Positions 1 through 35,632 of a stretch of DNA of 64,000 nt are shown one piece after another. Source of the stretch: Ceratodon purpureus (Eukaryota > Streptophyta > Bryopsida > Pseudoditrichales > Ditrichaceae); assembly GCA_014871385.1 (NCBI GenBank), contig CM026422.1:18542096-18606095 (forward strand), written 5' to 3'. A program made the translations under genes and the position numbers. The notes beneath the pieces are model-generated. The model was given only the letters and a program-made list of their open reading frames with translations, searched no databases and had not been told where the DNA came from. Every line of letters starts with the position of its first letter. Position 1 is the first letter of the stretch.

Positions 1-430
1 GGGGAAGGGATTGAGGAGGAGGGGAGGGGGGGATAGAGGAAGGGAAGGGGAAGGGATTAGAGGGGAGGGGAGGGGGGATAGAGGAAGGGAAGGGGAAGGG
101 GGGTAGAAGGAGGGAAGGGGATAGGGGATAGGGGGAGGAGGGGGAAAATGTGGAACCGGGAAACGGCTCTCGGATCCGAGAGCCGTTTCCCGGTCCCTCT
201 TTTCTCCCCCTCTTCCGGGTATATGGGGGAGGATAAGGAGAGGGGGGAGGGGAAAGGGGTTGGGCGGGGATGGGAAGGGGTAGGGGGGAGAGGGAAGGAA
301 TGAGAGGGGAGGGGAGGGGATAGAGGAAGGGAAGGCGAAGGGGGGTAGAAGGAGGGAAGGGGATGGGGGAGGAAGGGAAAAAAAGGGAACCGGGAAACGG
401 CTCTCGGATCCGAGAGCCGATTCTGGAACC
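1..430. repeat. Purine-rich tandem repeat with two long palindromes
   Basis: The plus strand is almost all G and A (units like GGGGAAGGGATAGAGG). A unit of about 234 bp occurs twice, each ending in a palindrome centred on TCGGATCCGA (170-179 and 404-413). The first palindrome is perfect over 155-194 (40 bp). The second has the same left arm but a shorter right arm (GAGAGCCGATTC). The block lies downstream of the methylase-like gene of copy 1, matching in position a pyrimidine-rich tract downstream of the gene in copy 2 (34640-34985). No coding signal is visible. Confidence 0.8.
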
Positions 431-783
431 CTCAATTTTTTATTAATTATTATTCTATATAATTAATATTTTGCAGATAAACGATTTAAAATACGTCAAA
501 TTATGTTGAGGAAGTGTTAAAGATAAATTGAATTAATGAAACACCAAAAAGTGGTTATACCGAATGTCTGGAGGATGGAATGAGCAAGTGGGAAGCTAGT
601 TCTTCGATCCTAGAGTCAATTATGCAAACCTTTAAATAAGACATCCAAAATAGCAGACATTACAAATTGGCATGTGAAGTAGCACTTTTGATTAAAATCA
701 ATAAGTGTTCGAAGATGAAAGCATAAGTGTTCATGTGGCAAATATTACAAAATATGCACACAAGTAGTCCAATATCTACAGGT

Positions 784-3700
784 TTATGCTCGACGGTCTT
801 CTTCCACAGTGTCCAGGAATGGAACGTGCTCCTCACTAGCATATATGTCTAAATATCTCTCAACAGCACGAGATTCTAGACTTGGTGTCTTCTCTGAAGG
901 AAAGGGAGATGGAGCCAATGCCAAGGTCTGAGCGGCTTGTTCTGCATACGAAGGTAATATGAATGACCTTTCAGGGCTAGAAATCCTCTCCACTGCTCTG
1001 CGAAATGAACTCCCCTCTCTGGATGTTTTGTTTCTTATTTCCCATCTGCATTGCCAGAAAGGAAATTAGCAAAGAACTCCACCGAAATTTGAATACTGCA
1101 AACTGCTAAAGTATGGAGATATGGACTTACTCACATTTGCGTTTCGGTGCCCTCTTGACCTCTGGTTCCATTATAACTTTAGAAGGGGGACGTCTTGGAG
1201 GAGATGGAGGGGTCGGTGGAGGAGAGTCTTCTTCATCGGAGCTCTGATATTGAAGAAGAACTTCCTGGTAAAGATCCTCGTCCGCCTCCAGTGCCACAAT
1301 ATGACGATAGAGACCTCTGCAAGCTCGAATGGATGCACCTGATACAACCTTACATTTAGTACTAAGAGCAAAAATCATTATAAGGAATTCCATAAAACAT
1401 CATCATCGGCGCGGAATAGATATGTCACCTGTGGATGCTGAAAGGTCGACAACAATGTCTTCTTCTTCGGTGCAGAGGTCAATTAGAGCCAGAAGCAAAT
1501 TGTCTGATTTCTCCCGAGCCCCTCGCCAAGGAATTCCGGAACGCCGTTGTTTCGTAATAGATTCCTCGGATATGCAGTTAGTAACCAGCCCTTTGTTGAT
1601 AAGATCTACACCTTGATCCAGGAGCTGGCTTTGAGGGTTGTAACGGAAGTTCGCATCCGGAATAGACTCCTCGCGGTTTTCCTGCCTAACGAACAGCTTC
1701 ATAACAAAGTATTCAACATACTTCCCAACAAAATCCGGCTTAGTGAGAGGCATATTGTTCGTCACGATCGACTTCATCTCCACCTTGAAGTTCGACCATT
1801 TCGCCCATGCTGAGATCTCGTTGGTGATATACTCAGAATCCGGGTACATGACAAGGAAACCCCCATCGTCGCTGAGCCACTCATTTGCAAACTCGAAAGC
1901 ATGCCTGATCCACTTCGCCTCCTTATTTCCATCCTCATCTCTAGTAATGAGCAGCTGATTCCAGATAGGAACCTCCTTCGCAGGTGGGAATCCAGGAACA
2001 GGCAAGCCCTCCGGCACGTCACAAATAATAAGGTCCACGCACTCGTTTGATTCCCGCCCCTTGTATGTCCGATGCTTACGTCCTTGATGTTCCTGCACAA
2101 AGCTCAGAATCTTCGAATACAGCGGCGGCTTCTTGCCCTCTTCAGCAATCGACTCGACCTCGAACTCGTCGAAGATACTCGTGGCACTCTCATTCAGAAT
2201 GAGGATTTCCGCATTGTCTTCCGCCGAATCTTGAGTCTTGATGGTGTAGACAGATTGCGAAGGCAAGCTAGATGTCCCGTGAATACTATCAGAAGGTATG
2301 CTACTGCCAGAAGGTGAAATACCTTCATCCTCAGCAACCTTCTTCAAGCCCATTTCCTTTACCTTCTTCGATTGAGTGAGAAATATGAGCTTCTCTTCCT
2401 TCCGTCTGATCGATTCCGCCCTCTCCTTTTCCTTCTTCTCAGCCTTTGCTTTTGCCCTCTGCTCTTCACGTTCAAGCTTTTTCGACATCTTCTTCCTCTG
2501 CTGTTCAGTCAAATTCAATAGCGCATCTGCATTCGCAAGGTCCAGGCCTTTAGACTTCATCTCCTCAGTCTCCCTCTTGCAGATGGCGAATGTCTCCAGC
2601 TCATGATCTGGGCAACGGTCTCCAGGCTTGAGCTCAATGTACCAAGGGCAACGATGAAGGTGCGGCCTCGTGAAATCGCGTCGCTGGCTTGGTGTAAAAA
2701 TGCAGTCCTCGCTTGCCGTGTCCAACCATTTCCTGAAACGAGCTGGAAATTGGTCTTCGGCAATTGCCCCTTTCTTCAACAACTCCTGCTGAAAGTACCT
2801 CACCACAACCCTGCACGCAGCTTCCTTTGTATTCTCCCACTCCAGAAACTCCTTCTGCTTATTAAATTTTGAGGGCTTCCCAACCAGATCCGGATAGCCT
2901 TTCTTCCAGATTATCTGGCTTCCGTCAAGAACGAATTTCCGGATGTCAACAATGGATCCCTCGAATCCCGGGCACGGAATCTGGAGATTGTCTTCATCGA
3001 TGATATTGTTATAAATATTTCCTGCTTCTTCCTCAAGCTGCATCAAACTCCAGAAGATTAGTAAAATTTCGGCCCCTCCAAATGGACTCTCGGATCCGAA
3101 AGTACCCTGGGCAGTGCAAAAATTATTTTCTCTGAATAATAAATGGGTATAGAAATTGACGACCTATGTGTTTTGGGAGATAACCAGCCTCCTCCGAAAG
3201 GACTCTCGGATCCGAAAGTACTCTTGACCCTGCAGGAATTTGATTTATACAACTCTAATGGGTACAGAAATTGACGACCTACAAGTTTTTGGAATTAGTA
3301 ATAGCCCCCTCCAAAAGGACTTTCGGATCCGAAAGTCCCCCTGGAGGTAGAGTTTTTTTTTTAAATATCAAGAATATGGTACCGAGAACTTACGCCTGCG
3401 TAGAAGGAAGCAGTTTCCACCCATGGTCTCAGTTGAGTAGTAGCGCAAGGTTGCTCTGGAAAGTTGTTGGCCTGTCGTCCATCCTTGCTCATATTCCACC
3501 ATTTTAACCATCGTTGCTTGTACTGGGCCGGAACTTTGGCGGTCGCTATCAACTGAAGCTTCTCTGGACTCATCTCCGGCTGAGACATATTACAATTGTA
3601 ATGCGCAATAATCTGTCCAACAACATCAAAATATTCATTAATAAAGTCAATAACATCATAAGCTGACCATTTAATCAAACACAACCTGAATTAAATGGTG

Positions 3701-6700
3701 ATGATTTGAACTAGGCTGAAATTAGGGCTGCTTATCGATAATTAAAGTAAATATCCAGTTCCACAGAACTACTCTCGGATCCGAAAGTACATTGGGCTGC
3801 ATCTACTTTCATTTTAAAATTAAGAATTAGCCTACGAAAACAACAACTCTGTCATACTGCAAAACTACTCTCGGATCCGAAAGTACATTGTGCTGCATCT
3901 ACTTTCATTTCAAATATGAGAATTAGCCTAAGAAAACAACAAGTTTGTTATACTGCAAAACTACTCTCGGATCCGAAAGTACATTGGGCTGCATCTACTT
4001 TCATTTTAAAATTAAGAATTAGCCTAAGAAAAGAACAACTCTGTCACACTGCAAAACTACTCTCGGATCCGAAAGTACATTGGGCTGCATCTACTTTCAT
4101 TTTAAAATTAAGAATTAGCCTAAGAAAAGAACAACTCTGTCACACTGCAAAACTACTCTCGGATCCGAAAGTACATTGGGCTGCATCTACTTTCATTTTA
4201 AAATTAAGAATTAGCCTAAGAAAAGAACAACTCTGTCACACTGCAAAACTACTCTCGGATCCGAAAGTACATTGGGCTGCATCTACTTTCATTTTAAATT
4301 TGAGAATTAGCCTAAGAAAACAACAAGTTTGTTATACTGCAAAACTACTCTCGGATCCGAAAGTACATTGGGCTGCATCTACTTTCATTTTAATATTGAG
4401 AATTAGCCTAAGAAAACAACAAGTCGGTTGCACTGCAAACCTACTCTCGGATCCGAAAGTACATTAGATAAGTATATCGAGATACCTCATCGATGAATCC
4501 CTCGCCATTTGCGGGGTCCGCGATGGCAAGCAAGCGGTCCATATTGGTGTGCAACTTCTTTTTGCAAGCCGCGATAGCTTCTTCGGATTTTTTCTTGACG
4601 TCAATAGATGAGCCTTCCAGGGCTTTCCCCTCGTACTTCAGCAGCGTGTCCTCGTACTGTTGAATCGCAGCGTCCTCTGCCATATTGATTTCCCTCTGTA
4701 GAGTACATAAAGCACATATTAAAATGGCATACAATCAAACGATGAATCATAATATCACGGAGGTAGGTTTGTTCAGTACCCCATACAAGAAGTTGCAAAA
4801 GGCATCTGCTGTCATGTGGTACCACTTCTTCTTCTTCTTCGTCACCTTTTCCCACTCCGCAACACTAGCTGCATAATCCCGTTTGGGAAGAATGGTCTTT
4901 AACGTCTCGAAGGGCATAGTGCCAAACTGTATGATTCGGCGTAATTCATGAGTCCAATGCTGTTCGACATGGTCGACTTCGTTCTTCCTACAACAGTAAA
5001 TCGTTAGCACCACTACTCATTTAATAAAGAAGAATGCAAAAAGCCGTAGTTTAAGACACTCACTTGTTCCAATGAGTCATCGCGTTTAATAGCTGCTGAT
5101 TGTTTTCTTCGGAAACGCGCAGTACGATTGACTTCACTGCCGGATGGAAATCAGGGTCGTCATAATGAAACTGATGAATCTCCTCCATCCAAGCCTTGAA
5201 TCTATGATTCCCATCCCAAATGAAGAACATTTTGTTTGAGAAGATTCTCAATTCCGGAATAGCTTGGCATTGTTCTTCGAATGTCTTCTCAGCATTCTTC
5301 CAAGTGTCTGACCACCCGGATCTAATCTCGTCTGTTACCTCCTGTGTCTGCAATGCATAACTGTGAAGCGACACATAGAAGCATGGTCCACCTCGCCTGT
5401 AGCCAGTAGCAAATTCCGCCTTCAGCTTCGCAATATCTTTCAACAGAGGACTTCGTACATCTGTCATTGCCACCATCCTACAAAGCGGAATATCCAACTC
5501 CCCAATCGGCTTCTCCACCGATTCATTAAGGACGATGTGTGAGTTTCCAGCACGTTTCTGCCTCAATTTCGCAACCGTATAATGAACTCCACGGCCTTCA
5601 GATGGCTCTTCTTCTTCTCCAGCTCCCTCCACATCCATAGGTACAATCTCAGACTCCTGAAAATCACACCCACGACTACATCAGTTCTCTATATATCCTC
5701 TAAAATATCTGATTGTATTATCTCTCAAGTCTGCGGACAGAGGAAAATAATGTGCACCTCAGAAGTACCTTCGGATCCGAAGGTACTTCAGAGGGGCACG
5801 ATATTTTCCTCCACCCTGAACCCTCTCCCCCTTCTCTGCCACCATATCATTCTTCCCTCCTCTCCTCTTCCCCTTTTTCCCTCTTTTATCTCCCTCCCTT
5901 CTCTGAATTTCACTCGCCCGCTGTCCTCTGTCTTCCCCTACTCGACCTCCCAATCCCGTTGTGGGGGAAAAAGTGGAGGGCGAGGAAGGGACCTTCGGAT
6001 CCGAAGGTCCCTTCCTCCCCCTCAACTTTCAACCCTACTGTCCCTCTCTGCCCCTCTTCATTCCCCTTTCCCCTCTCCCTCACCCTCCTCTGCCTCCTCT
6101 CCCCCTTCCGCGGGAGGGAAAGTGGAGGGGGAGGAAGGGACCTTCGGATCCGAAGGTCCCTTCCTCCCCCTCCTCTTTCCCTCCTACTGTCCCTCTCTGC
6201 CCCTCTTCACTCCCCTTTCCCCTCTCCCTCTCCCTCCTCTGCCTCCTCTCCCCCATCCGCGAGAGGGAAAGTGGAGGGGGAGGAAGGGACCTTCGGATCC
6301 GAAGGTCCCTTCTCCCCCCTCCTCTTTCCCTCCTACTGTCCCTCTCTGCCCCTCCTCACTCACATCTCCCCTCTCCCTCACCGTCCTCTGCCCCCTCTCC
6401 CTCATCCGCAGAAGGGGAAGTGGAGGGGGAGGAAGGGACCTTCGGATCCGAAGGCCCCTTCTTCGCCCTCTACTTTCCCCCCCACCGCCCCTCTTTGCTC
6501 GTAAACCGACCTCCCCCCCACCTCCCTCTCCCTCTCCCACCCCCTTCCTCGCCCTCCCCTCCCCTTCCACTGCCGCGTCTCTCCTCTCCCCTCTCCCTCA
6601 CCCTCTTCTCCCTCCTCTCGGTAGGTCCCTCACGCTCCCTCTAAGGTCCCTCACCCTCCTCTCCCTCCTCTCGCTCTGCCGCGGGAAGAGAAAGAGCAGG

Positions 6701-8221
6701 GGCAGAGAGGGACCTTCGGATCCGAAGGTCCTTCTCTGCCCCTGCTCTTTCTCCTCTGGTAGCAACTCCCTCCTCTTGCTTCCTGACATCCTCTCTACTA
6801 TCCTATCCCTGTTCTCTCCCTTCTCCCTTCTCCCTCCCTTCTCCCTTCGCCCTCTCCCTTCTCCCCTCTCTTCTGTGCTGTCTCAACACTACTCCCTTTG
6901 CGGGGGGGAGAGAAAATGCCATGGTCCGCAAGGACCTTCGGATCCGAAGGTCCTTGCGGACCATGACAACTTCTCCTCCTAACCCATCAACTCTCTCTCT
7001 TCACCTCTCCTCTGTCCCCTCCTCTGTTCCTAAACCTTAACTCTCCTTTCTCCCTCTGACCTTCAACCCCTCTCTTCTCCCTTCTCCTTTCACCCATCTT
7101 CTTCCCTTCTCGCCTCCCTACTCTCCCTCTCATCTCAGTCATCCTTCCTTAAGCAATCCGAATACAAGATTTCAATACAAAATCTATTTTAAATAAAGCG
7201 TAAAACGTACCTCTTCCGCGACTTCTTCCTCCATCGCGGACCTTGAAGCTGCAGACGCTGATCCTGGTGTATTCATCTTCTTCGAGGTTCCTCCTATCTT
7301 CACCTTCTTCGACCCTCTCGAACCCTGCGCCGCGCCAATGCTTAAACCCTTCATCTTTTTTCTGTCCCCCTCGTCACTACTCCCAGACTCACTTAGCACA
7401 ATACTAGACTCTGGTTTCTGAACCCTTCCCTTCTTCCTCCCAGTCATAGCTCTTATACCCAGCGAACCAAGGTACCCTCACAGCCCTAACCCTAAACACA
7501 GCCGTCACAAAAAGCTAACTAAGATTTCACAAAGAACGCAGACAATAGAAAACAACCCAAGATAACCAAGCACAAAGGAAAGCACGTAAATGAAGCATCT
7601 GAAGTGGGGGTTCATATACCTTGCCTCCGCGGCCCAGAGGAATCCTACAACAGAGAGAAGGGGAAGGCCAAAGAGTAGGGAAGAATGAGGAGATAAGACA
7701 AGTCGCGCAGCAAGAGGGACAGAATGAGTGCAGATGAGCCCTTCTTATACCTCTAAGTCCTCAAGTGGGAAGCTACTCGCGACCTTCCCGCCCACGCAGC
7801 CCAATCCGCGACCAGGGAGAAGTGAGCCGCAAGTCTCTTCCATGCCCCCAAGCTCGAGTATTGCCTCTACTACGCCATCATGCACCTCTTCGGGAACCGC
7901 TGAAGTGACGTCCAGCACCTCAGGTGCAACCGCTGCGATAATTGGTGTCTCCACTTCAATTGAGTGGCACTTGGGCCCCTCCTCTAAAATATCTGAGACC
8001 CTTCGCAGCGGTCGTTTACTAACTCCCTCGTCAGTACAATCCTCAAACGTTAACGACCTAACTAGAGTGTCCACCTCCTCTAGCAATTTCTTTTGTTTCT
8101 TCCTTGCTATTGCAACCCTCTTGCCTTTAGGTACACCTGAATTATTTTCGTGCCCATCCTTCTTCTCAGGACTACTAATCGATTCTAGAACTACTAACTT
8201 TCTCCCTTTCCTTTCCCTCAT
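784..8221 (-). CDS. ParB-like / N6-N4 DNA methyltransferase-like fusion protein (transposon copy 1)
   Basis: Ten exons can be joined in frame: 8221-7751, 7644-7620, 7449-7211, 5656-5064, 4987-4780, 4695-4486, 3612-3394, 3037-1429, 1338-1131, 1045-784 (4044 nt, 1347 aa), all with GT-AG introns. Residues about 250-440 resemble a ParB/DGQHR-type domain, with the motif WDGNHR at about 392-397. A Lys/Glu-rich, probably helical stretch follows at about 830-890. The C-terminal third looks like a beta-class (permuted) N6/N4 methyltransferase. The motif IV position reads DLIICDVPEGLP (about 992-1003), and motif I comes later as DLSASTG (about 1187), continuing SIRACRGLYRHIVALEAD as in the usual DPFxGSGT...GRRxIGxExD. 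The canonical DPPY and FxGxG residues are lost, so activity is doubtful. The first exon (Lys/Glu-rich) is assigned from splice phase only. Introns carry palindrome arrays. It is paralogous to 24926-34259. Confidence 0.8.
3066..3345. repeat. Three-copy intronic repeat (about 116 bp) with TCGGATCCGA
   Basis: Three palindromes at 3090-3099, 3206-3215 and 3323-3332 lie at 116-117 bp spacing in the intron between 3394 and 3037. Each follows a CCTCCAAA-like sequence and GGACT. Arms differ slightly (CTCTCGGATCCGAAAG, then TTTCGGATCCGAAAG). Confidence 0.85.
3765..4470. repeat. 96-bp tandem array, eight palindromes
   Basis: TCGGATCCGA occurs at 3775, 3871, 3967, 4063, 4159, 4255, 4351 and 4447, exactly 96 bp apart. 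Units share CTACTCTCGGATCCGAAAG, then GTACATTGGGCTGCATC, and an A/T-rich remainder. Because 96 is a multiple of three, the array opens a spurious repeated reading frame on the plus strand. It fills the intron between exons 4695-4486 and 3612-3394 of the methylase-like gene. The same intron in copy 2 (28408-31596) also holds most of that copy's palindromes. Confidence 0.95.
5740..6980. repeat. Purine/pyrimidine mirror array with seven long palindromes (149-bp core period)
   Basis: TCGGATCCGA lies at 5771, 5995, 6144, 6293, 6442, 6716 and 6938. The middle four are 149 bp apart. To the left of each site the plus strand is purine-rich (GGGGGAGGAAGGGACC) and to the right it is the pyrimidine complement, giving imperfect inverted repeats of about 65 bp. 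The last site is a perfect 46-bp palindrome (6920-6965). The array lies in the intron between exons 7449-7211 and 5656-5064. Long C/T-rich tracts continue to about 7140. Confidence 0.92.
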
Positions 8222-9604
8222 GTGTATGACATAGACTCAACGCACCAATCTAGACACAGAACTTAAGCGCAGATTTAAAGAATAAAATGTACCTTATCAA
8301 CCTAAGCTCTTATACTACCTCTGAGTACTGAACTACTTGGCGATTCAAAAACTTTAATTAACCTACCCGTAAATATCACCTTGATTCCAGATCTAGGATT
8401 AGACTGCAATCGGCGGCGATACCATGTCGCCGATACGAGCACTATAAAATCAGAAGTTGAATCACTTCTATCGCTCTCTTTATGTCAGCTCTCGTTGCTA
8501 AACGGCCGTAGAATTCGAATATGACTCATGTAATGCAGATGAAGTTTGCGGACAGTGCAGCAACGAAGGAACCTGCCACAGACGAAATCGTTTCTCTGGA
8601 TGATCTTCATGGACCGTTTGATCCACTCATAGATGTTGAAGCCGGGATTACCAACGTCTCCGGAGATGCGGCTACTCTGTTCCAGCCCGTGGAAGACATT
8701 GTGGAAAATGAAGCGATTCATCCATCCGATGACCACGTGGAGGACGGCAATATGAGATTGACGCCTGCTCCAGAAGCGTCGAGGACTCACGCCTATTCGA
8801 AGGTAGGAGTTATCCCACGTGGAACATACCACAGGACAATGTTTAGTGGGACACATAGGCGTAGAGGTCCTAAACTTAGCACGCCAGGTTGTAGGTCCTT
8901 ACCCATACCCGACAATATCAATCGTGGAACTGAGAATTCCGCTGATGCAATAAGTGTAGACCGCAAAGACGGCCCTTGCAAGCGAAATAAGAGGCTGTAA
9001 TTCTCTTTCCCTTTTAAGGCTTTAATATTAATACAATTGCCTGCGTATTCGATCAATATGCTCTTAACCTCATTCGTCAGTTTTAATCGTGGTGGGAAGT
9101 CTTTATTCCTAATTAATATTATCAACAGAATGATCGGAAAGTGCATTCATATTCCTGACCATCGCCGTCAGAGGCCTCTCTAAGAATATCCACGACAGTA
9201 ATCCAAGTACATAGATTCCGTAAATGGTAAAAGAACTCTGTCCACTTAATGGCTCATTTACGCAGAGTCTTCTGGATACCCGCGCACTAATATCGTATCT
9301 GGAGGAAAATAGTTTATATGACTCATGTACTCTCGGATCCGAAAGTCGTTTCTCAACCCAGACATTTCGTCTGTAATCTTGAATTAGGACACTCATAATT
9401 TAGAACTTACAGGATGCCTATCTGATTTAACCCTCCTAAACTGGACACCTGGCAGAGGGAATCATGTATGTACCTAACATCCTAAGTATATTACAACGAC
9501 AATTATAATTTAAGCAAGGAGTCATTGTATATGAAGCTCCAAGTCCTTCCCCAATTCATTCCTTCAAGTCATCTACTGTGGCCTCTTCCTTCTTGTTCTC
9601 TGTA
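8222..9604. promoter_or_regulatory. Divergent intergenic region, transposon copy 1
   Basis: This spacer separates the start of the minus-strand methylase-like gene from the plus-strand transposase and must hold both promoters and leaders. It contains one open frame (8521-9000) and one palindrome (9333-9342, flanked by ACTCTCGGATCCGAAAGT). The matching spacer of copy 2 (24227-24925) is half as long. No TATA box can be assigned with confidence. Confidence 0.5.
8521..9000 (+). CDS. Hypothetical 159-aa protein or 5' exon, function unknown
   Basis: An uninterrupted frame of 159 codons, rich in acidic residues in its first half and ending in a basic tail (KRNKRL). It matches no family I recognise. 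It lies between the two divergent transposon genes of copy 1, and copy 2 has no room for an equivalent. It could be a third cargo gene, an upstream exon of the transposase transcript, or chance: an overlapping antisense frame of 123 codons also exists. Confidence 0.35.
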   Translation: MTHVMQMKFADSAATKEPATDEIVSLDDLHGPFDPLIDVEAGITNVSGDAATLFQPVEDIVENEAIHPSDDHVEDGNMRLTPAPEASRTHAYSKVGVIPRGTYHRTMFSGTHRRRGPKLSTPGCRSLPIPDNINRGTENSADAISVDRKDGPCKRNKRL

Positions 9605-13981: not shown

Positions 13982-14353
13982 TGCTCTCTGCTCCCGCTCG
14001 CTGCTCACAAGATAGCTTCGCTGGCTCCCAGTGGTGACCTCTAAACACTTTTCTCATCCAAGTTGTGACGTCTAAAGGGCCGTCAACCTCAAAATTTCAG
14101 CCCTTTAAAGGCCACCCTTAAATCGCCGGAAATAGAAAATTTCAAGCTCTCATCTTTCTATCTTCTTTCCAGTACACTTGGGTTTGGATTTTTTTTGCAA
14201 CTTGTTAAAGAGTTTCACAACAACCAAGTAAAGGAATCGTTTACAGATCACCTTTAAGGGAAAACCAAAATTCCACTCAACCTATAATTGTGATGTAATT
14301 GTCCGTCAAAGGCCCTTTAAGGGTTTACAGTAAAGGGACTAGTGGAGATGCTC
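13982..14353. repeat. Right subterminal region and terminal inverted repeat, copy 1
   Basis: A cluster of CTGCTC/GCTCAC units leads into GCTCACAAGATAGC, also present near both ends of copy 2. The terminus GGGACTAGTGGAGATGCTC ends at 14353 and is followed by TTA. Between them lie repeats of CCTTTAA/AAAGGG type. Confidence 0.7.
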
Positions 14354-14383
14354 TTAACCAATTTTAGTTGGATAATCAGGTTT

Positions 14384-19958: not shown

Positions 19959-20032
19959 GAGCATCCGCACCCCTGCTCCAAGCGTGACACTAGCCAAAGC
20001 TTGTTTCCAGGGCCCTTGAAGCCTCCAGCGAC

Positions 20033-23600: not shown

Positions 23601-24226
23601 GATGCCGTCATCCTGATGGCAAACAAGACGCTTCTATTTTTCTGGGAAGTAGGGTGAATAGGTGGACGCCCTGTAGACAATGATGCGGACATACTAGAAC
23701 GACTGCTCTGTCGAGATGGACGACTTGACTGCTGAGACCCCCGAGACTGGAATGGATTTGACCTAGTATCTCCTAACTTGATCTCACTGTGAGTGTCATC
23801 ATCCGAGTCACTCAACAAATGCACTGAATTGTCACTCGGTTCAATTTTTACAGATGCTCTACCAGGAACTGGTACCGTAGACGTTGAAGGAGGAGGGGTC
23901 AAGAGAACAGTAGACTCAGACATCTGTGCATCTGATAATCCATAGACCTTGAACATTCCAGTGCTAAGAGTCCAAATGTAACCATCAGGTGTACTATCCT
24001 TCACTTGAAATATACACTCACGAATCTCTCCATTATCATCAAAAACCTCTTCTTCCACGTAAATAGTCCCGGCTCTAAATCCAAACCTGAGACTAAGCAA
24101 TCGCTCCTCAACAACTACTTTATTGTCTGCACCTACAGACATAACTAATGGAATACCTCCATCATGAGCTCGCAGAGAGGCCATTCTAAGAGTACTATAG
24201 AAGATAGAAGAAGTACAATCATGCAT
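20604..24226 (-). CDS. MULE-like transposase with SWIM zinc finger (copy 2)
   Basis: Two exons, 24226-22079 and 21974-20604, join in phase 0 to 1172 aa. It aligns end to end with the copy-1 protein: the same start (MHDCTSSIF), the Ser-rich region, the Cys/His cluster (CPNPSCDY, CKICQTPP, HLGRHRHPV), the core motifs IMFDHVRRV and GFMADNAGANWHAV, ERTCLFHWTKCLQ, and a C-terminal SWIM finger CTCPDF...YCKH. The intron lies at the same position (after GGSMQL) and here contains an A/T run. The two proteins differ at many residues throughout yet both frames are open, so the copies are old relative to each other but apparently conserved. It is divergent from the methylase-like gene at 24926. Confidence 0.87.
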
Positions 24227-24925
24227 TTGAGAAGATCTTGTGCAAGAAGAGTGTAAGGAGCTGAGCTTAGTGTTTATGAAGTTGTAGAGATTATATAGTT
24301 GTTAGTAGACAATGTATCGGGACAACTAACACACTCTAAAATGGAATACACTGTATTGGCGAACTCACCATGACCTGTATAGCTTAATTTAAGTTAAAAT
24401 ATTTCTGACAAACTAAAGAGCTTAGGCGGCTGAGACCGCCAATCATGTCATGTTCATCTAATACTATTATATCATTCAGCCGTGAATTTGAAACGTCACA
24501 GATGTGCAATAATTGATTTATAACAATTCGCCGTCAATGTGAGCGTGATCAGATGTGCTTTAATTTAAATGATGATTTTTTTTAGAATAAGAGTTCCAAA
24601 ACTTACTTCATATTTAGAAGAAAGATCATACCAGACGAGTCAGTGGTGTTCTCAACTTTCAACATAAAATCAGGTCGTTCCCTTTATAGATGATTGTCTG
24701 AGTTTGGAAAAGGGTACGCACCTAATTTTTCAATTACATATTAACTTTAAATATAACGAAGATACTGACACAAGCATTAGCACTCACAAATTCCTCATGC
24801 ATGTATTATAGGTATAATGTGTGATAAGACAGAAAGATCGCTATAACACTGGAGTGAGCACTTCTCGACTTCATAGCTTTCGTCTTAGTTAGAATTATGT
24901 TTACGGGAGAGCGTCACTGAGACAC
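24227..24925. promoter_or_regulatory. Divergent intergenic region, transposon copy 2
   Basis: A 699-bp spacer between two divergent start codons, presumably a shared bidirectional promoter. AT-rich; no palindrome core lies here and no specific box can be assigned. Confidence 0.5.
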
Positions 24926-27900
24926 ATGAGGGAAGAGGAGGAGCCAAGTTCAAGAGTGTCAAGGGCTCCTAGATCATGTACAACTAGAGGTAGAGGGAGA
25001 AGGCGAGGTTCAGGTTTTTCTAATCCGAAGCAGGTGGCGGCCCAAAAGAGACGGAAGGAGAAAGACGCTCTTGATCGTATTGCTGAAGTGGATTATAGTT
25101 CAGATGATCCAAAGCACCTCAAAATCAAAGCATTGGCAACTATATGCGAGGTATACCATTTCATGTTGCTTGCTTTGTGTAAATGACTGATAGAACACAA
25201 TTTAAGATATTGCATTATTTAGTTTTAATGGATTTATATGTAGAATTTTAATTTTATAGACCGATGGAGACGGACAGTGACAGGCAGTGGACATGGTCTT
25301 CACGAAAACCTCATTTTCCATCAACAGTAACTATGGGAATGTTAATTAGTGAATATTTGGACTTGGATTTTACGACATACTGTCAAGTACTTCGTGTTGA
25401 CTTTGTGGTTCCTTGCGAAGGAGGGTTTGCAGGAGAGTGGGAGGTCGGGAGGGGGAGGAGGCGACGCACTTGAGAACAGCGACCCGTCGACAATCGTTTC
25501 CAGCACCATCGAGCCCTCTGAATTTGTAAGTATCGAGAGTGTATTTGATTTTGCTAGAATCGTTTTTTTCTGGGGTCTGATTTACTCAATGTGCTACCTT
25601 GAGTTTCTTGCGCTTGCAGGAAGAACTAAACCCTAGATTCACTGGCAGGTACTACGGGCGGAGAGAATTGACTCGGAAACTGAGCAGGAGTCGCTGAAGG
25701 CGGGAGACTTGGTTCAAGAATCTCTGCAGACGGTCTCGGGATCTCAGGTAATCCTTTAAAGGAAGCCCTGTCTTAGTCAGTATTTTGGTTGATTCTGCAA
25801 CAAATTCATACAACATCATAGCTACTGGGAGTTGGTCAAGCTCGTTTCAAGCGAACATGTCTCGTTAAGTAGAAGTGTTTTAATCAGAAACAATGCAGTT
25901 GAAAGAAGCACAAGACCTCTGTGGGCCAGAGTTTGGGCTCAACGAGCATCAGTCGGGTGTCTGTATCGACGGCATGTTTTAGAAATCGGTCTGAGTTTAC
26001 GAGGAAACTCTTCATTGTTCATTCGAAGGGGTACTTCGAAATGTAGTTGGAGGAAAAGCAGGACTGCGATCTAACAATGGCCTGCGCGGAGTGGCCTGCG
26101 CGGAGTGGCCAGCGCGGTTTGAATTCGAGGGTGTTTCCTAGGCTTTTTCAGGACATAAAATATTCATGTGAACGATCACATATTTCTGATGCATGCAGTG
26201 GTACCAGTCAAGGTTTTAGGAGGTAACATACCTTAATTGTGATTGCAGATTACTGAGGCCATGGACCAAGTTCGAGGGATTGAAGGATCTGAGCACCAGA
26301 ACATGGAGGTATGTTTCCTCAATTCGTATTCTGTGTTAAACATTTCTTACTCTTTCAATGTTCTTTGGTAGCCAGCCGAGAAGTTCACATGTTTGTATCT
26401 TCGGATCATACTGAGAATTGTTTCCCAGAATCCGTTCCACTGCCCACAAAGGAAGCAAATCAGTGTAAACTTCTACTTTCTAAACTTCTGGAAATGCAGC
26501 GAAGTAAAAACAAATCCTTGAGCCTTGGCTGGATAGTTGGAATCTCATCAATACAGAGTTTGAATCGTTTGTTGAGCCGCATTCTGTGACCAAAAGAGAG
26601 AATTTAGGAGACGCGGTTGTGCATGGGCTGTTGGATTCAGTTGCATTCAGAGAGTGATTTTGATGGTCTGGGTGTTGTCGTAGATGAGAATTTGCACCCT
26701 TTGATATCGGAGCTGGACTGATCAATTCAGAATTGTGACTTGTTTCTGCACGCAGATGAGCGGTGAGGAACATGTTCAAGAGGTCCAGAGTCCTTCACGC
26801 CCTATGGACCACGAGGACGGGGGCATGGCCGAGGCCGAGGAACAGCTTCGGAGATCAGTGATTGGCAATTCACATGTCGCATTACAAAGCGCGCTCGACA
26901 TGCCCGGAATTGAGATTGATGTACCCCTGTGCCGGATGATTTCAATGAAGGACGTCAGAGAGCCTTTGAAGACGGATATTCAGAAGCTGAAGGCCGAGTT
27001 CTCACGTGGATACAAGAGGGCGTCATCATGCTTCTACCTTTCTCTGCGGAGTTTTAGGATGGAGGAATGCAGTGTCACTGAAGCAGACAGAGCATCATGG
27101 TCTGAGCTATGGCGGAAGGAGGATGATGATTTTGAGAGAAGATTGTCGGCAAATCCAGCATTCCAGAAGTATTCCAACAAGTACTTCTACGTGTGGGATG
27201 GTAATCATCGACTCATAGCCTGGTCAGAGGTTATCAACACGCTTCGGAAGAATGATGCATCATTTCATGTTGCTGTTCGATCGGTATTTATCAATGTCAC
27301 ACCTGCAAACTGCAACATGCTTTTGCATGCCATGACCGACTGGAATAAGTAAGTGTTCAATTTCTTAATTTATTGATTAAACATTTTCTATACTTCGGTG
27401 ACTTGAGTCCTAGTAGAGCACCCTGGCTCGTGCCTTTTAGCTGCGATCAGTGATTGCACTTAGCTGCTTCCCTCTGAGGCGTTTAATTTATGGTCTTATA
27501 AGGCAAAAAAATAATTACCCTCGGCACCCCTGGTCCATCCCTCGGATCCGAGGGGTGCCATGCTGGCCCATTTTTTTTCTTCTGTGTTTAAACTGTGAGC
27601 CAGAGCAAGAAGCTCGAGTCAGGTTATTCTCTGTAATTGGGGTGAATTGAGCTGTAATGATGATGTGTAGCTTATTGCTTAGTGATGCTCTATTTAGATT
27701 AGTCACCAACACTTCTGCATTGAGTCTATACCGTGAGGTCCAGCATGAAGCTGGAGTCACGGCATTTTAATTTATTTTAGTGAATTCAGCTTTGACATTT
27801 CATCATTATATTTATTAGGATGTATGTATACTTATATATTTCGAATAAATATTTGATTACAACTACTCAATTTCCGTGGAACACAATATTTTCTAATGCA

Positions 27901-30900
27901 CAAGTGATGCAGGAAAAACCAAGTGGACCACGTAGCACAGCATTGGACGCATGAGCTGAAACGTGTCCAACAACTAGGTTTGTTGGATTTTGACCAACTG
28001 AAGGGTCTTGTGAAAGAAGAGGACTTACAAGCCAGTATACTTGAGAGGGCACGCCTGAAAAACAGAAAATGGTATCACCTTACGAGTGATGCATTTATCA
28101 ACTTCTTATACGAGGTAAGATATTCCTACTCTAAATTACTGTCAATTGTAACCATTATTAGTGTTTAAGTATTCACGGATCATTTTTGTTTATGAAGAGG
28201 GAGATTTCAGCAGCCCAAGAGGAGGCGATTCGAGCTTATAAAGACACTCTCATTACAGGCACTGGAGAAGATAGGCCAGGAAATCCATCTGAGCTGAAGG
28301 CGGTTGCTGCTAAAGCAGTAGACGTGAAGAAGACTTCGCTTTCCACACGTCTGGATCGTTTTATCGCCATAGCCAACCCAGCCAATGGAGACGGGTTCAT
28401 AAAAGAGGTACGTCAATTTTTAAGTTGCATGTATCTTCGTTAACAGTAAGGTTTGTTTTCTTTAAATGTCTTGTTCTCGACTTCCACCTTTGACAAGCGG
28501 ATGTGAGTGTTAAATCATTTCTTTTAAATGCCAAGGACACCCCTGGTCCATCCCTCGGATCCGAGGGGTGCCTGGGCGGAGGCTATACAAATTGCTATTT
28601 CTGCATATGTCGCTCTAGCAACTACTCGAGCTAGTTTTATTATTCTAATCTCTTCGGCAATTAGAGGTGGAGCCATGCTCCTTGAGCTGTGACTTTGAGG
28701 TTGTGAGTTTCATTTTGGTGCTGAAAGTTAATTTTTGTAAATGCCGAGGACACCCCTGGTCCATCCCTCGGATCCGAGGGGTGCCTCAGCGGAGGTTAGG
28801 ATGTTTGCTTCTTCTCATTAGACCTTCAGCGGTGTTAATGCTCGAGCTCCCTTTATGCTCCCTTTTGTGTCAGAGCTCCCTTCATGCTCCAGTCACTGCC
28901 GGAGCTTCCAGCGTTTTTCTTGTTTTCTGTAAATTGGCGCGAAGAATCTTGGTCGAAGATGCTGCTCTCGGATCCGAGAGGTGGATCTTTTCTTGATTCT
29001 TTTTTTTTTGGAATTAGATTCTTATTTTTTCAACTGCCGAGGACACCCCTGGCCCATCTCTCGGATCCGAGGGGTGCCCCGGTGGTCCCTTTGCAATCTG
29101 TTGTTTTCAGTTTGCTTGTTGTCTGTTTGGTGAGTCTGCTTGTTGTCGGCGTCTGTTTGGTGAGTCTGCTTGTTGGCTGCGTACTCCATATAAATATTAC
29201 AGAACTTATGTCGTGAGTTTCTTATTTGTACCTCATCTAATGAATTTCTTATTTGTAGGAGTTTGATGCAAGCATTGAAATCTGACACCTTTCTTATGTG
29301 ATCCTGACCCGGAAAGTGCTAGTATTCGATTGTCGTGTGAGGAGCAAATAGCTTTTAACTATCAATTTTCACATAGTTTTTATTTGGTGGACTAGAACCA
29401 AACCAAAGAGCCAGTGTTATTGTGAGCACCCACTTCGTACCTGCTTAGTACTTTTGCGTGAATGTTAGGAATGTTTTTTATCATTTCGTATGATCAACGA
29501 TAGACCATTCTAATTTGCAAAGCTTATGTAGGGATCTTGTGAAGCTCGCGGACTTTTGCAAGCACTTTTCTTTTGTGCTGTTCAAGCTGGTTGCTGGTTT
29601 TTAGTATCTCTCATTTTGAGTCTGAATAGTCTTCACACAGGAATTGCTACACAGTTCAATGTTTCCAAATCGCAGTAGACACACGTTAAGGTTGTTTATC
29701 GAAGGCTATGAGTCACATACTCTCATAGCCCTACGTTGTACTCCGTGCTGTGTCAAACGTTTACAACTATACTGGAACGTTCTCGATTTTTTTGACAATT
29801 GACTCGCCTCCTGTACCGGTGGCAAATTGATCCTTCTTAATGCAGTGCTTGCATACCATTGAACATGGAGAATTCCAGCTCGAATTCTATAATTGATCTT
29901 GCAGACATGGCTGAAACAGAGAATTAAGTGCCATTCCTTCGACTGTCCTTCTCTGGTTTTTCGTAAATTAGCTCGAAGAATCTTTCTCTCAGATGCTGCT
30001 CTCGGATCCGAGAGGTGGATCTTTTCTTGATTCCTTTTTTGTTAAAGAGAGATTCTATTTTTTTCTCCTGCCGAGGAGACCCCTGGTCCATCTCTCGGAT
30101 CCGAGGGGTCCCCCGGTGGTCCCTTTTCAATCTGTTTTTTTTGTCGATTGCTAGCGTTTCCTGGGCTCTTATTCGTTGTCGTGAGGTTTTGGATTGCTTG
30201 GTGATTGGGGTAGCCTTCGGAGTTGGAGTCGTTTGTTGTTTGTTTCTGCAGCGGGGTTTGGTTTTTCAGTTTTGCATTGTCGGCCCATTTGGTGACAGAT
30301 CAGATCGGCGCTGTGGTGGATAGTTGTGTGGTTCTTTCGCTGTTGGACATGTTAAAAAAGGGTTCTATATTGCACTCAAAGACACAAACTAGTTAGTCCA
30401 TTCTCAAGTTTTGGGCGACCATTAACGACAGAAGTGGGCTTTATCTCTTGTAAGATGATGTTGAGGTGTGTACTGTGGACGATTTTGTGAAGTGGTTAGG
30501 CTGTCAATGTCTCTAAACTCTTCAAGTTTGTGAGTTGGCCGTTGTATTTCTGCTAGCGATAAGCGAGAGTTTCTGCAGGTGAAATTTCGAGGTGGTGTTC
30601 GTTGAGATACTCTTTCTGCATGTTTGTTAACAATATTGAGCAAATTCATAAAGCATCATTGGACATCGTTTGCTCTTTTACATCATTGACCATCGTTTAC
30701 TCGCTGCATGTACTGTACTGCCTAATTTCAAAATTGTGTCTGAATTGTGCTCAACTGTTCAATGTTTTACTGAATTGACTTATTTGTTCACGACACCGTC
30801 CTCATTAGCTGAGCCCTAAGACGATTAAAATGCCAGAACGTAAATTAAGTCTGACTATCGATTGACTTCCTTGTTATTTTAGTGGTTTCAGAAACCCATG

Positions 30901-33900
30901 TAGTATAGGTTTTTGTTCCACCACTCTGTACTTGTTCGATTTTGCTTTATGATTCAGGTTTCAATTGTGTAATTATATCTGCTATGTCAATATCATATCC
31001 ACCGGTATGATGCAATTACGCAATAACAGGAAGAGGTAGGGTAGTGATAACCCATGCTCGTATTTATCTTTGTCGATTCAGTACATCTAGTTCGACGGTT
31101 CTCTTGCCGTTTTCATTTCCGGCTCAGGAGGTACTCGAACCGATCTTGATTCTGATGTTCTTAGCATTTGTGGAATCAAAATTATCATCGTTACTAGGCA
31201 TCTGAATCTTTAGGCTAATGTGCATTTCATTCTGCTATATTTGTCGCTGTAGCAACTCCTGTCCAGCTTGTGTATTCTGTACTTCTGATCGACAATTTGA
31301 GGTGGAGCTAAGCCTCCTGACCCGTGAGTGTATGCATGCTGCCTGCTCGAGGCAGGTAGCGAGGGTGTTCCTGCAGCTTGTGTCATGCTCCAGCCAATGC
31401 TGGAGCTCCTTGCTTTGGATATTTATTACTTTCAGTTGTCATCTTGAAGTGAGTAATAGTTCTATGTTCTCGGATACAGTATACCAGAGGTGAATGTTTG
31501 TGGATTCAATTTCTGTTTTTTACATTCATTTTTTTGATTATGAGTAGTTGACTAATCAATGAATCTGACATAATTGTACTTATGATTTCTTTGCAGATCA
31601 TTCGCCACTTTGACATTTTTCAAACAAAAGCAGAAATGACCCCTGAGAAATTGCAGCTCATTGCCTCTGCTAGGGTGAGTGCCAAGCATAAAGAGAGGTG
31701 GTTGAAGTGGTGGAACATGAGTAAGGAGAGTCGACAGGAGTACAACTTTCCTCCACAACCAGCTTCTGATTTAGCTCTCCGGCCTTGGGTGGATCAAGCT
31801 GCCTTCTGGGCTGGAGTAAGTATTCATTTCTTAAGCTCTTGCAATTCTTTATAATTTTGTTGCCTTTCACAGTTTATAATATGCCTTCTTCATAAATAAA
31901 GTCATGATTTGGTTTTGAGTTCTACCATTGATTGTTTTTTCAGTTAGAGGAGGAGGCAGTCATTCGTTATGCCAAGATTGTAGAGGAGGACATGATAGTT
32001 CTGAGGACAACGGATTTACCTAATCCTGTTGATGATATTGGCTCATGGATTGAGTCTCATTCCATCACTTTGTGGGGGAGAGCTTTTAAGAGTTTTTTTC
32101 CTAAGGCTGGCACTTATACAAAGAAAGAGCCATTTCTCCACCAGGCTGGTGCTGAGATTGCTATGAAGCGGGCAATTTTGAGGTATTTCTGGAGGGAGTT
32201 AGTTGTCAAGGGTGCCATTGACAGGAAGGATATTCCTCAGCGGTTTAAGAAGTGGGTCGATGTCTCTAGCAGTGAATGCATCTTTACAGATTATCAGAGG
32301 AGGCATTTTGGAGCTCCTCATCTCCTTCAGTGTCCTTGGTACCTTGAGCTCAAGGAGAATGATAGTTGCCCCGGGGAGGAGAGAGGTCTTAAAGCAAGTT
32401 GTGAGAATTTAATGAAGCAGCTTGTGGCAGAAAACATGGTGGATTTGGAGGAGGATACCTCCCAGGTTGGTGATGATGCAGGCCTTTCTGAGACACAGAA
32501 GAAGAAGGTGGCTGAGAGGAAGGCTAAGGAAGCGGCAAAGATGAAGGAGAAGGAGGACAAGAAGAAAGAGAAGGAGCAGGAAGTCAAGCTGAAGAAGGAA
32601 GTGGCAGCAAGGAACAGAGAGTTGGCCAAGTTAGTTTTGAAGGAAGGGCCAGAGAAGTTGATGTCTCATGTTGGCATTTCTCCTTCAGGCAGTAGCATGC
32701 AGGCTGCCATAGTTCCTGTAGCTCCTCAGGTGCCTCTTTTTTCTACCCCCATGCCTTCTCAGACTATCTACACCATTCCTTGCTCGCAGTTGGATGAGGT
32801 AGATACTAGGGTTGAGATCATCAATGACTCCCCTATGGGCATTTTGGAGCTGTTTAATGATCTATCAGAGGGGGATGAGCCTGAGGTTTGGATGAAGGTG
32901 AAGGACTGGATCAAGGAGAATCTCGGTAGCAAGGCTAGGAATTTTGGTGGTGAAGAGGCTGAGGCTGCTGTGGACCTCATCATTTTTGATGTTCCAGAGG
33001 ATTTACCAGTTCCAGGTTTAGGGCAGGATGGTGAGATTCCATTCTGGAACAAGCACCCCAAGATTTCAGCAGGGAAGAAAATGGAGTCTTCGTGGATTAA
33101 GGCCCATTTTGAGTTTGCTATGCAGTTTCTGCAGGATGATGGAGCCTTGATTGTATTCTACCCTGATTCAAGGTTCATTTCGAATGAGCTTATTTCCTGG
33201 GCAGAGTGGGCTAACTTTCAGGAGGAGGCCAAGTGGTTTGCAATCAATGGCCTGCCATTGACTATTCCAGATCGTTATCCACGGGAGCACAAGACTTTTA
33301 TGGTCAAGTGCTTCATCAAGATGGAGAATGCGGAGGAGGGTGTTCCAAGGTCTAAGTTCCAGTTTCATGATAGGGCTGAGCTTGGTGCCCAAGGCATCAA
33401 GCTCTCCACTGATGGTCACTGTACTAATTTGATTACTGCAGATTCTCTGACTTATAATTCAGAGACAGGTTTGCCATTCAGAGGTCCTAGAGAGAAGACT
33501 TCTAACCTCTTGCAGGCTCTGATTGATCTCTGCACTGTAGAGAATGACATTGTCATGGATCTCACAGCTTCTACAGGTATTTTTTAGTCTTTCTGTTCTT
33601 TGATTGTTGTTAGTTGTATTTCTTTTTATTCTTTAGTCTCATGCAATTGAGCTACAATTTGTGTGTAGGTGCTTCCATTCGAGCATCGAAGAGTCTCCGG
33701 CGCCATGTCATAGGCTTTGAGTATGACACCACCTTGTACAAGCAGGTGTTGTTGCCTCTTCTTCCAAGCGCCGAAGAGGTTGAGTCTGCTCCAATTCCTG
33801 TGGCATCACCAAAGAAGAAACGTGCCATTGAATCAGATGATGAGCCTGAGAGGAAGACTGCCCCCAAGCGTTCTTGTAAGTAAGTCTCTACATTCATTTG

Positions 33901-34259
33901 ACATTTGTTTATTTGTTTACAAAAGTTTAGTTCAATATTTATTAAACTGTGAAATTGTCATGTGCAGTCGGAAGAAAGCGTTGAAGAATGACATTGGTGG
34001 CTCTATTATCTCGCGCCATCTTAGCAAGATAAAGAGTCCAGTTAGACCTTTAGAGCTTCCACATTATGCAGAGATGCAGGCTCAAGCTTATTTAGCTGCT
34101 CCTTCTCCATCTATTTCATCTGATAGAGATAGCATTTGTCGTGATGCTGAGATTTATCTTGACATAGCTGCAGAAGTTGCCAGAGTGGTATTATCTAGTG
34201 ATAGCGATTCTTATGATGGTTGGATTGATACTCGTAGCGATGATGAGATGTCTACTTGA
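24926..34259 (+). CDS. ParB-like / N6-N4 DNA methyltransferase-like fusion protein (transposon copy 2)
   Basis: Eleven exons join in frame: 24926-25150, 25433-25525, 25649-25747, 26249-26308, 26756-27348, 27913-28114, 28198-28407, 31597-31815, 31944-33576, 33669-33879, 33968-34259 (3837 nt, 1278 aa). Exons 5, 7 and 8 have the same lengths as in the copy-1 gene (593, 210, 219 nt). The ParB/DGQHR-like domain has WDGNHR at about 306-311. A Lys/Glu-rich stretch lies at about 750-795. The methyltransferase-like part shows DLIIFDVPEDLP (about 911-922, motif IV position), then DLTASTG split by an intron (about 1107), followed by ASIRASKSLRRHVIGFEYD, very close to the usual SxxxA..LGRRxIGxExD. Catalytic DPPY is replaced by DVPE. 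Exons 1-4 rest on splice phase only. A 3.2-kb intron (28408-31596) carries most of the copy-2 palindromes. Confidence 0.82.
27518..27566. repeat. Palindrome-bearing repeat, GGACCAGGGGTG type, copy a
   Basis: The repeat CACCCCTGGTCCATCCCTCGGATCCGAGGGGTGCC has TCGGATCCGA at 27542. CACCCCT can also pair with AGGGGTG outside the inner palindrome. It lies in the intron after exon 26756-27348. Related copies are at 28533 and 28742. Confidence 0.9.
28530..28786. repeat. Palindrome-bearing repeats, GGACCAGGGGTG type, copies b and c
   Basis: Two nearly identical units with TCGGATCCGA at 28555 and 28768, each preceded by a GCCRAGGACACCCCTGGTCC block and followed by GGGGTGCC, in the large intron of the copy-2 methylase-like gene. 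Confidence 0.9.
28928..29108. repeat. Two-palindrome intron block, copy 1 of 2
   Basis: A block of about 180 bp with palindromes at 28968 (GCTCTCGGATCCGAGAGG) and 29061 (TCTCGGATCCGAGGGG). It is duplicated at 29962-30142 with scattered differences. Short TTTGGTGAGTCTGCTTGTTG repeats follow at about 29127-29178. Confidence 0.92.
29962..30142. repeat. Two-palindrome intron block, copy 2 of 2
   Basis: Second copy of the block, with palindromes at 30002 and 30095. Cores are identical to those of the first copy, while the intervening sequence has changed. Confidence 0.92.
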
Positions 34260-35163
34260 TCATTGCATATTTACTCTATATTGTTATGTTTTCCCTACTT
34301 CTATATTATATGATAGCTTTGGCTTTGGATTTTATATTTTGCCTTAACCTCACTTTACTCTACTTTTGTGTGAATTTCTCTACCGGCCATATATTTTAAA
34401 GTCAATTCAAACATGATTGAATAATAAAATGGTACTAATTTTTTAAGAAGTTGAACATTCCTTGGTTACAACTTGAAGGCATCACAGTAAAATATGGTTT
34501 TCTTAAAACCTTTTTCATGTAGTTTTCCCTACCCTTTAAATTGCACCTTTAAATTAGTCATCCAACAATTGGATGAAAAGTTTGTCATCCCAAAAAACTT
34601 GAAGCCACAGTCATCTGCAATAGCGGTTGTGTATATCCACCCTAAACCTAATTGTTTTTATTTTATTTTTATCTTTCTTCTTTCTCTTCTTTATGTATTC
34701 ATTAATTTTATTTGTTTTTCTTTTTTAGTGAATTCCTTTTTATGTTTCGTCTTCTATTTTTTTAAATTATTTTTTAATTTATTCGTTGCTTTTCTTCTTT
34801 CGTTGTTTTATTTATATTTCTTTCTTTTCTTCTTATTTTCCTTCATTTTTTTATTTTTTTTCCCCTATATTCCTTTTCATTATTTATTTTTAATCTATTT
34901 TCTTTCTTTCATTTATTTATTTTTTTTCTTTTCTTTTTTTTCCTTTTGTTTTTTTTTTTCTTCTTGGTCTTCATGGCGTGGAATTGATAGGATATATGAA
35001 AAAATAATCACTATTTATTCGGGTATGAATCGGGTGTAAATTTCTACATTTATCAATTTAGAAGCCATTATTTTAAGAATATACCCTAAAACACCTTCCA
35101 CGGTCATAGGTCCCATATATGCCATGTCATGCAAAATCATCTCAAAATATCAAATAAATAGTC
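34260..35163. other. 3' region of copy 2 with pyrimidine-rich tract
   Basis: After the methylase-like stop the DNA becomes strongly T/C-rich on the plus strand (about 34640-34985). A long open frame here only encodes Phe/Leu/Tyr runs and is an artefact. No gene is seen. Confidence 0.7.
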
Positions 35164-35632
35164 AAAAAATTGAAAATTTAGTGCTCACCGCTCACTGCTC
35201 ACTGCTCACCGCTCACAAGATAGCATTCCTGTTGAAGCCTCCCAGGACTTGGTATAACTTTGGCCCCCACCCCTCCACGTCAAAATTCTGACAGGTTCTT
35301 AAATGTTGCCGGAGATTCTACGCACTTTTAGTCGATCGGTTTCAAAGGTTGCTGTTCTAGGCATTTGAGTAGCTGAGGTGGCCGGTGGAAGGGGAGGAAG
35401 GAGCGGGGGCTTGCCAAAAATAAGGCGGAGCAGACTAAATCATTGTCGAGTTGAGCTAAAAGGGGGCTCGCTAAAACGAACTCAGGTACACCAAACTAGC
35501 GAGTCGGGACCTTCATTTGAGGAGCCCGCAAACTTCCCGACAGTTTTATGAGTCCTAGTGGGGGGAGGTTTGGAGCCCAGGCCCGCAATACTGTATTCCG
35601 GCCCTGCTTTTGGAGCAGGGGTGCGGATGCTC
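35164..35632. repeat. Right subterminal repeats and terminal inverted repeat, copy 2
   Basis: GTGCTCACCGCTCACTGCTC-type units (35181-35217) leading to ACAAGATAGC are the reverse complement of 20033-20095. The terminal repeat occupies 35610-35632. The 380 bp between them carry no gene. Confidence 0.88.

What the first reader, a model, noticed from the sequence alone, without database searches (positions are those of the whole stretch)
1..35632. Transposon family pairing a SWIM-MULE transposase with a ParB-methyltransferase-like protein
Two elements in one window each carry the same divergent pair: a transposase and a large protein with a DGNHR ParB-like motif followed by a permuted DNA-methyltransferase fold. 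The gene pair, intron positions and exon phases are shared, and copy 2 is bounded by matching termini. ParB-methylase fusions are known from bacteria and phages. A plant-type transposon carrying one as its standing partner gene is, as far as I know, not described.
Basis: partly seen in the sequence, partly recalled or inferred. Interest (0 to 1): 0.95.

Follow-up and report, generated by a model that had tools for sequence, protein, structure and literature searches.

The report
Moss jumping gene marking its own DNA
A large family of jumping genes in a moss carries, beside its transposase, a second gene resembling a bacterial DNA-methylating protein, and its non-coding parts hold repeated copies of one short palindrome that this second protein may recognise, perhaps to keep the element from being silenced.

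Summary
The gene pair is real: in both copies a 2-exon transposase diverges from an 8-exon partner gene (MT) with matching exon phases. Of 20 transposase copies sampled elsewhere in the genome, 18 carry MT, which is under purifying selection.

The transposase is Mutator-type (ISCth4 transposase is the top structural match; 10-bp target duplications). MT's C-terminal half matches N6_N4_Mtase (E 1.6e-8), but motif IV reads DVPE. The ParB part rests on a DGNHR motif alone.

Apparently new is a palindrome, TCGGATCCGA: 33 copies in the window, all in non-coding DNA of the two elements; 4,181 in the genome against 117 for a control. It and its one-base shift are the only 10-mers in MT intron 4 of all 20 copies examined, and the core hardly varies while flanks do. 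The layout resembles VANC targets in VANDAL elements, so sequence-specific anti-silencing by MT is the leading hypothesis; it is inferred, not shown.

The parts
1..14023 (.). copy 1 of the element, cut at its MT-side end by the window start; transposase-side end about 14003-14023 (GCTCACAAGATAGCTTCGCTG)
784..7447 (-). MT1 gene, 8 exons: 7211-7447 (uncertain), 5064-5656, 4780-4987, 4486-4695, 3394-3612, 1429-3037, 1131-1338, 784-1045
   Evidence: PF01555 E 3e-4, below cut-off
9605..13196 (+). T1 transposase, 2 exons: 9605-11746, 11838-13196
20026..35231 (.). copy 2 of the element, complete, 15,206 bp, TIR of about 68 bp
20016..20025 (.). target-site duplication TTGAAGCCTC, left
35232..35241 (.). 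target-site duplication TTGAAGCCTC, right
20604..24226 (-). T2 transposase, 2 exons: 22079-24226, 20604-21974
   Evidence: Foldseek ISCth4 6xgx_A E 6e-4
26261..34259 (+). MT2 gene, 8 exons: 26261-26308 (uncertain), 26756-27348 (DGNHR), 27913-28114, 28198-28407, 31597-31815, 31944-33576 (motif IV-like DVPE and motif X-like region), 33669-33879 (motif I completed), 33968-34259
3776..4455 (.). 8 TCGGATCCGA sites, one per 96-bp tandem unit, MT1 intron 4
5772..6946 (.). 7 sites with palindromic arms of 8 to 25 bp without mismatch, between MT1 exon 2 and the uncertain exon 1 (149-bp tandem units in part)
3091..3331 (.). 3 sites, MT1 intron 5
171..412 (.). 2 sites downstream of MT1
9334..9341 (.). 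1 site between MT1 and T1
13476..13643 (.). 4 sites downstream of T1
20375..20382 (.). site downstream of T2, centre of a perfect palindrome with 23-bp arms
27543..27550 (.). 1 site, MT2 intron 2
28556..30103 (.). 6 sites, MT2 intron 4

Best explanation
This is a high-copy, two-gene Mutator-superfamily DNA transposon in a moss genome, probably Ceratodon purpureus. Shown: one gene is the transposase; the other (MT) is a conserved partner whose C-terminal half matches the permuted N4/N6 DNA-methyltransferase family, with a DGNHR motif near its N-terminus; the element's non-coding DNA carries arrays of the near-invariant palindrome TCGGATCCGA. Inferred: MT acts in trans on these sites, probably as a symmetric dimer, binding them and perhaps modifying the central GATC or the CpGs, or binding without catalysis. 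This marks or shields the element against host silencing, much as VANC proteins do for VANDAL elements. Internally deleted copies keep the sites and could be served by MT from intact copies.
For: Pairing: 18 of 20 sampled transposase copies have MT within 10 kb; the 2 without MT have no site in that stretch. Both genes are conserved: MT exon 6 dN/dS 0.14-0.26 in 18 copies against MT2, transposase exon 1 0.07-0.09 in 7 copies. Sites: 33 in 16,070 bp of element non-coding DNA, 0 in 13,974 bp coding, 0 in 33,957 bp outside; 4,181 in the genome against 117 for the reversed pattern; TCGGATCCGA and its one-base shift are the only 10-mers in intron 4 of 20 of 20 copies. Core mismatch rate 0-0.043 against means of 0.28 and 0.40 at 11-40 bp away; 163 exact against 6 decayed sites. 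Bases beside the core are symmetric: p 0.0005 (1 of 2,000 shuffles) at 3 of 5 pairs, 0.034 and 0.056 at the other two, over 33 distinct but related sequences. 14 of 15 transposase-side stretches hold a site, in palindromes with compensatory changes. Of 10 site clusters taken in order from contig C1, 7 hold element sequence. VANC21 likewise binds a short motif arrayed in introns and other non-coding DNA of its own element (PMC5735166, passages).
Against: No experiment or genomic test ties MT to the sites; the transposase or a host protein could bind them. Motif IV is DVPE in place of the usual amino-MTase motif (usual form recalled), so catalysis may be lost. No ParB profile match, and the exon-2 model failed. 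L044 and L053 lack MT residues 688-1037 but keep sites, so sites do not need an intact MT in cis. No methylation or expression data were available. Many sites sit in tandem units, so they are not all independent.
Confidence: 0.5

Rival explanations
1. The palindromes are binding sites of the transposase (internal assembly or enhancer sites), not of MT.
For: A site lies near the transposase-side end in 14 of 15 stretches, with long palindromic arms. The transposase has candidate DNA-binding regions (weak GCM/WRKY-like matches).
Against: Most sites lie in MT intron 4, kilobases from the ends; the terminal inverted repeats carry other repeats (GCTCACC-type), the usual place for transposase binding.
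Confidence: 0.2
2. The sites work as RNA hairpins in introns and 3' regions (splicing, stability or dsRNA), not as DNA sites.
For: Arms are complementary with compensatory changes; in MT sites many non-Watson-Crick flank pairs are G-U, 3 of 3 at -1/+10 and 4 of 6 at -2/+11.
Against: The apical TCGGATCCGA, loop included, is the invariant part while the stem varies; several sites have only 5-8 bp arms without mismatch; in the transposase-side palindromes none of the 3 mismatches at pairs 1-13 is G-U; sites also lie between the genes and downstream of MT1.
Confidence: 0.15
3. The arrays have no function; they are tandem repeats homogenised by unequal crossing-over, gene conversion or hairpin-templated repair.
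For: Many sites sit in regular tandem units; palindromes can template their own correction (recalled).
Against: Spacings differ between copies (96 bp in copy 1, 392-393 in L013 and L022, mixed in others) and 33 distinct 20-mers surround one fixed core; copy 1, with MT only 35-56% identical to MT2 piece by piece, has the same core.
Confidence: 0.1
4. MT is an ordinary active N4/N6 DNA methyltransferase without sequence-specific link to these sites.
For: PF01555 and PHROG matches; the Ectocarpus counterpart is annotated as a DNA methyltransferase (PMC12477816).
Against: DVPE or DIPE at motif IV in 9 of 9 aligned sequences that reach it; the strong site enrichment would be left unexplained.
Confidence: 0.05

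Closest known systems
ParB-like + N4/N6 DNA-methyltransferase accessory proteins of algal transposons (Sola1-1_Ec32 of Ectocarpus; green and red algal elements cited there), PMC12477816
   Same: Protein of similar length (1104 aa there, 1135 aa here) with a MTase domain and a ParB-like part (motif only here), on the strand opposite the transposase; proposed there to bind and modify its own transposon (passages).
   Different: There a Sola1 transposase in a brown alga; here a Mutator-type transposase in a moss. The terms palindrom* and binding site do not occur in that paper's main text. Sequence homology between the two proteins was not tested.
VANDAL elements with VANC anti-silencing proteins (Arabidopsis), PMC5735166 and PMC10398659
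   Same: Transposon with a partner protein and a short motif arrayed, often in tandem repeats, in introns, intergenic and terminal non-coding DNA (passages); VANDAL is a group of the Mutator survey PMC6446971.
   Different: VANC motif YAGTATTAY is not a palindrome, and VANC is not described as MTase-like in the passages read; here no binding or demethylation has been shown.
TET/JBP-encoding DNA transposons of fungi, PMC12730594
   Same: Transposon carrying a DNA-modification enzyme gene (start of abstract; passages).
   Different: Dioxygenase, not MTase-like; the term MULE does not occur in its text.
ParB-CTPase fold fused to N6_N4 methyltransferase in phages, PMC12704722
   Same: Same proposed pairing of domains (passages; domain order not seen).
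   Different: Phage proteins; MT2 exon 6 has no match in 50,697 phage records at E<=1.

Membership tests
Mutator (MULE) superfamily | DDE/RNase-H-like transposase related to Mutator/IS256 | tested here: met
   [not shown]
Mutator (MULE) superfamily | Target-site duplication of about 8-11 bp | tested here: met
   10 bp at one offset in 4 of 4 copies with both flanks readable: copy 2, L009, L014, L027. L027's flank itself resembles the terminal repeat.
Mutator (MULE) superfamily | SWIM zinc finger | tested here: inconclusive
   CxC...CxH pattern by eye; Pfam SWIM E 0.1 and 0.24, below cut-off, for T1 only.
N6_N4 DNA methyltransferase | Profile match | tested here: met
   PF01555 35.2 bits against cut-off 26.7 for MT2; MT1 21.3 bits, below.
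N6_N4 DNA methyltransferase (active) | Motif IV (D/N/S)PP(Y/F/W) | tested here: not met
   DVPE or DIPE in 9 of 10 aligned sequences; the tenth ends before the motif. Motif definition recalled.
ParB/Srx fold | Profile or structural match | tested here: inconclusive
   No match; model unusable. DGNHR invariant in 16 of 16.
VANDAL/VANC anti-silencing system | Motif arrays in non-coding DNA of the element | tested here: met
   33 of 33 window sites; in the 10 C1 clusters 7 hold element sequence.
VANDAL/VANC anti-silencing system | VANC-family protein | not tested
   No VANC sequence was compared.
VANDAL/VANC anti-silencing system | Partner protein binds the motif and removes methylation | not testable with these tools
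   Needs experiment.

The most novel reading that the evidence does not exclude
A land-plant transposon uses a bacterial-type MTase-like protein to mark or cover its own DNA at a dedicated palindromic site, TCGGATCCGA, arrayed in its introns: a self-recognition system that arose independently of VANC and may involve 6mA or 4mC at GATC.
Probability: 0.3. Interest if true: 0.9.

Novelty: new variant of a known kind. Interest (0 to 1): 0.74.

Why it matters
Algal transposon proteins of this kind were proposed to bind and modify their own element, but the passages I read name no target. Here a specific candidate target is visible in the genome, in a moss where it can be tested, and its layout parallels the VANC anti-silencing system of plants. 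[quoted passage not shown]

Tried and rejected
That they belong to an older repeat in which copy 2 is nested is inference; no other copy of that repeat was sought.

Against the reading in the site-cluster sample: L045 and L046 are single sites without palindromic extension and without close element sequence (L046 lies beside a distant transposase, 31% identity); L050 has 2 sites and no match. One of 15 transposase-side stretches, L042, has no site. L017 has MT only to residue 684; its further pieces are weak (25-34%) and on the other strand.

Genome-wide counts of MT and transposase by protein motif, and a test of MT copies for a nearby transposase, did not complete. Linkage was tested from the transposase side only, in 20 copies that I picked by hand from the 60 scored of 2,752 candidates, so from the closest relatives of T2. 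L019 and L023 are the two without MT.
Full report
Source. The window lies in a genome of 362,488,568 bases in 151 contigs whose contig C6 has 110,524,308 bases. This fits the moss Ceratodon purpureus, described with a 360-Mb genome and U/V chromosomes above 100 Mb (PMC8000587, passages). The identification is inference.

Gene pair. Splicing by hand gave MT1 and MT2 (8 exons each) and T1 and T2 (2 exons each) with matching phases. MT1 and MT2 are 39% identical in exon 6 and 45% in exon 2. Spliced MT2 matches N6_N4_Mtase above its cut-off, MT1 below. In relatives the stretch at motif IV reads DVPE or DIPE (9 of 10 aligned rows; the tenth stops short), and motif I reads DLTASTG in MT2 where DxFxGxG is usual (usual forms recalled). 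So SAM binding is plausible and catalysis uncertain. The ParB label rests on DGNHR and its place before the MTase part; no profile supports it.

Transposase. The protein search gave 41 relatives. A model of exon 1 from 37 sequences has mean pLDDT 71.9 and pTM 0.42. Its strand-strand-strand-helix-strand core at 532-601 carries D536 and D602, invariant in the alignment, followed by CxxH at 631-634. The best PDB match is ISCth4 transposase. The match is modest; inverted repeats and target duplications support the same placement.

Element boundaries. Six copies read at the MT side (copy 2, L009, L012, L014, L021, L027) diverge right after GATAGCATTCCYG. At the transposase side the end is CAGCGACGCTATC, found in 14 of 15 fetched stretches. 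Four of four copies with both flanks readable have a 10-bp duplication at the same offset; in L022 both ends were found but the stretch stops 2 bases beyond. Copy 2 is 20026-35231.

Linkage and selection. From 60 scored of 2,752 candidate transposase places I took 20 and read 10 kb on the MT side: 18 have MT, covering 674-1122 of 1,135 residues, some cut by the stretch end, L017 truncated. MT exon 6: dN/dS 0.14-0.26 in 18 copies, two of them compared over about half of the exon or less (L017, L024); 16 without a stop, L016 with 1 and L025 with 2. Exon 2: 0.08-0.16 in the 6 copies where dS is not saturated; saturated in 12 and in copy 1. Transposase exon 1: 0.07-0.09 in 7 copies, two with one stop. 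Silent divergence is higher in exon 2 than in exon 6 between the same copies, which suggests mosaic elements.

The palindrome. CGGATCCG occurs 33 times in the window where 0.19 is expected; all 33 are TCGGATCCGA and all lie in non-coding parts of the two elements (region labels there used slightly wider element ends than the final ones). The 18 MT-bearing sampled stretches hold 1-15 sites each, mostly in MT intron 4, in tandem units that differ between copies. Eight 5.2-kb stretches centred on transposase exon 1 hold none. A count of all 10-mers in intron 4 of 20 copies (18 sampled, copies 1 and 2) puts TCGGATCCGA and its one-base shift CGGATCCGAG alone at 20 of 20; the next, extensions of the same site, reach 16. 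Among palindromic 10-mers in these stretches it has 163 of 425 occurrences, the next 11. Over 1,510 pairs of windows with similar flanks the core mismatches at 0-0.043; flanks average 0.278 and 0.401 at 11-40 bp, and vary from 0 to 0.49 within 10 bp, with the adjacent base on each side at 0. That test admits only windows within 3 mismatches of the core and at least 60% flank identity, which favours the core, but the split of 163 exact, 5 with one and 1 with three mismatches is far from neutral decay. Bases beside the core are symmetric. Downstream of the transposase the palindrome is nearly perfect for 13 pairs beyond the core, with compensatory C-G, T-A and A-T changes at -2 to -5 and 3 mismatches (11 distinct sequences). 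The whole genome has 4,181 sites against 117 for the reversed pattern, which has the same bases but no CpG.

Site-cluster sample. Ten site clusters from the first 4 Mb of contig C1, in the order listed, were read in part: 7 of 10 carry element sequence, and these hold 21 of the 25 sites in the fetched stretches. L044 and L053 lack MT residues 688-1037 yet keep their sites; L047 has a terminus and 3 sites but no coding match in the stretch.

Mechanism. A near-invariant symmetric DNA site, multiplied in non-coding DNA of an element that encodes a conserved DNA-methyltransferase-like partner, is best explained as that partner's target. VANC21 shows that a VANDAL element can use such a layout against silencing (PMC5735166, PMC10398659, passages). 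The steps MT-binds-site, modification and anti-silencing are inferred.

Prior work. ParB-methyltransferase transposon proteins are in print for algae (PMC12477816, passages; its references 50 and 51 seen as citations only). The Mutator survey PMC6446971 has no occurrence of methyl*, ParB or moss in its main text.

Noticed in passing
window 19959-19979 and 35612-35632: 21-bp inverted repeats flanking copy 2 outside its target duplication: probably the ends of an older repeat in which copy 2 is nested.
   Followed up: partly
window 14024-14360: Beyond the transposase-side end of copy 1, about 320 bp on, the sequence GGAGATGCTCTTAACC resembles the ends of the repeat around copy 2.
   Followed up: no
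window 8512-9000 (+): 162-codon open frame between MT1 and T1 of copy 1 without Pfam match; the region is 99% identical in another copy (L048).
   Followed up: partly
L044 and L053: Element derivatives with MT residues 688-1037 missing at the same place but palindrome sites kept: probably a non-autonomous subfamily.
   Followed up: partly
MT exons 2 and 6, L009-L028: Exon 2 is more diverged at silent sites than exon 6 between the same copies, suggesting recombination or conversion between elements.
   Followed up: no
window 44325-45614 (+): Cysteine-rich open frame with repeated CNGCET-like motifs, no Pfam match.
   Followed up: no
[not shown]
   Followed up: no
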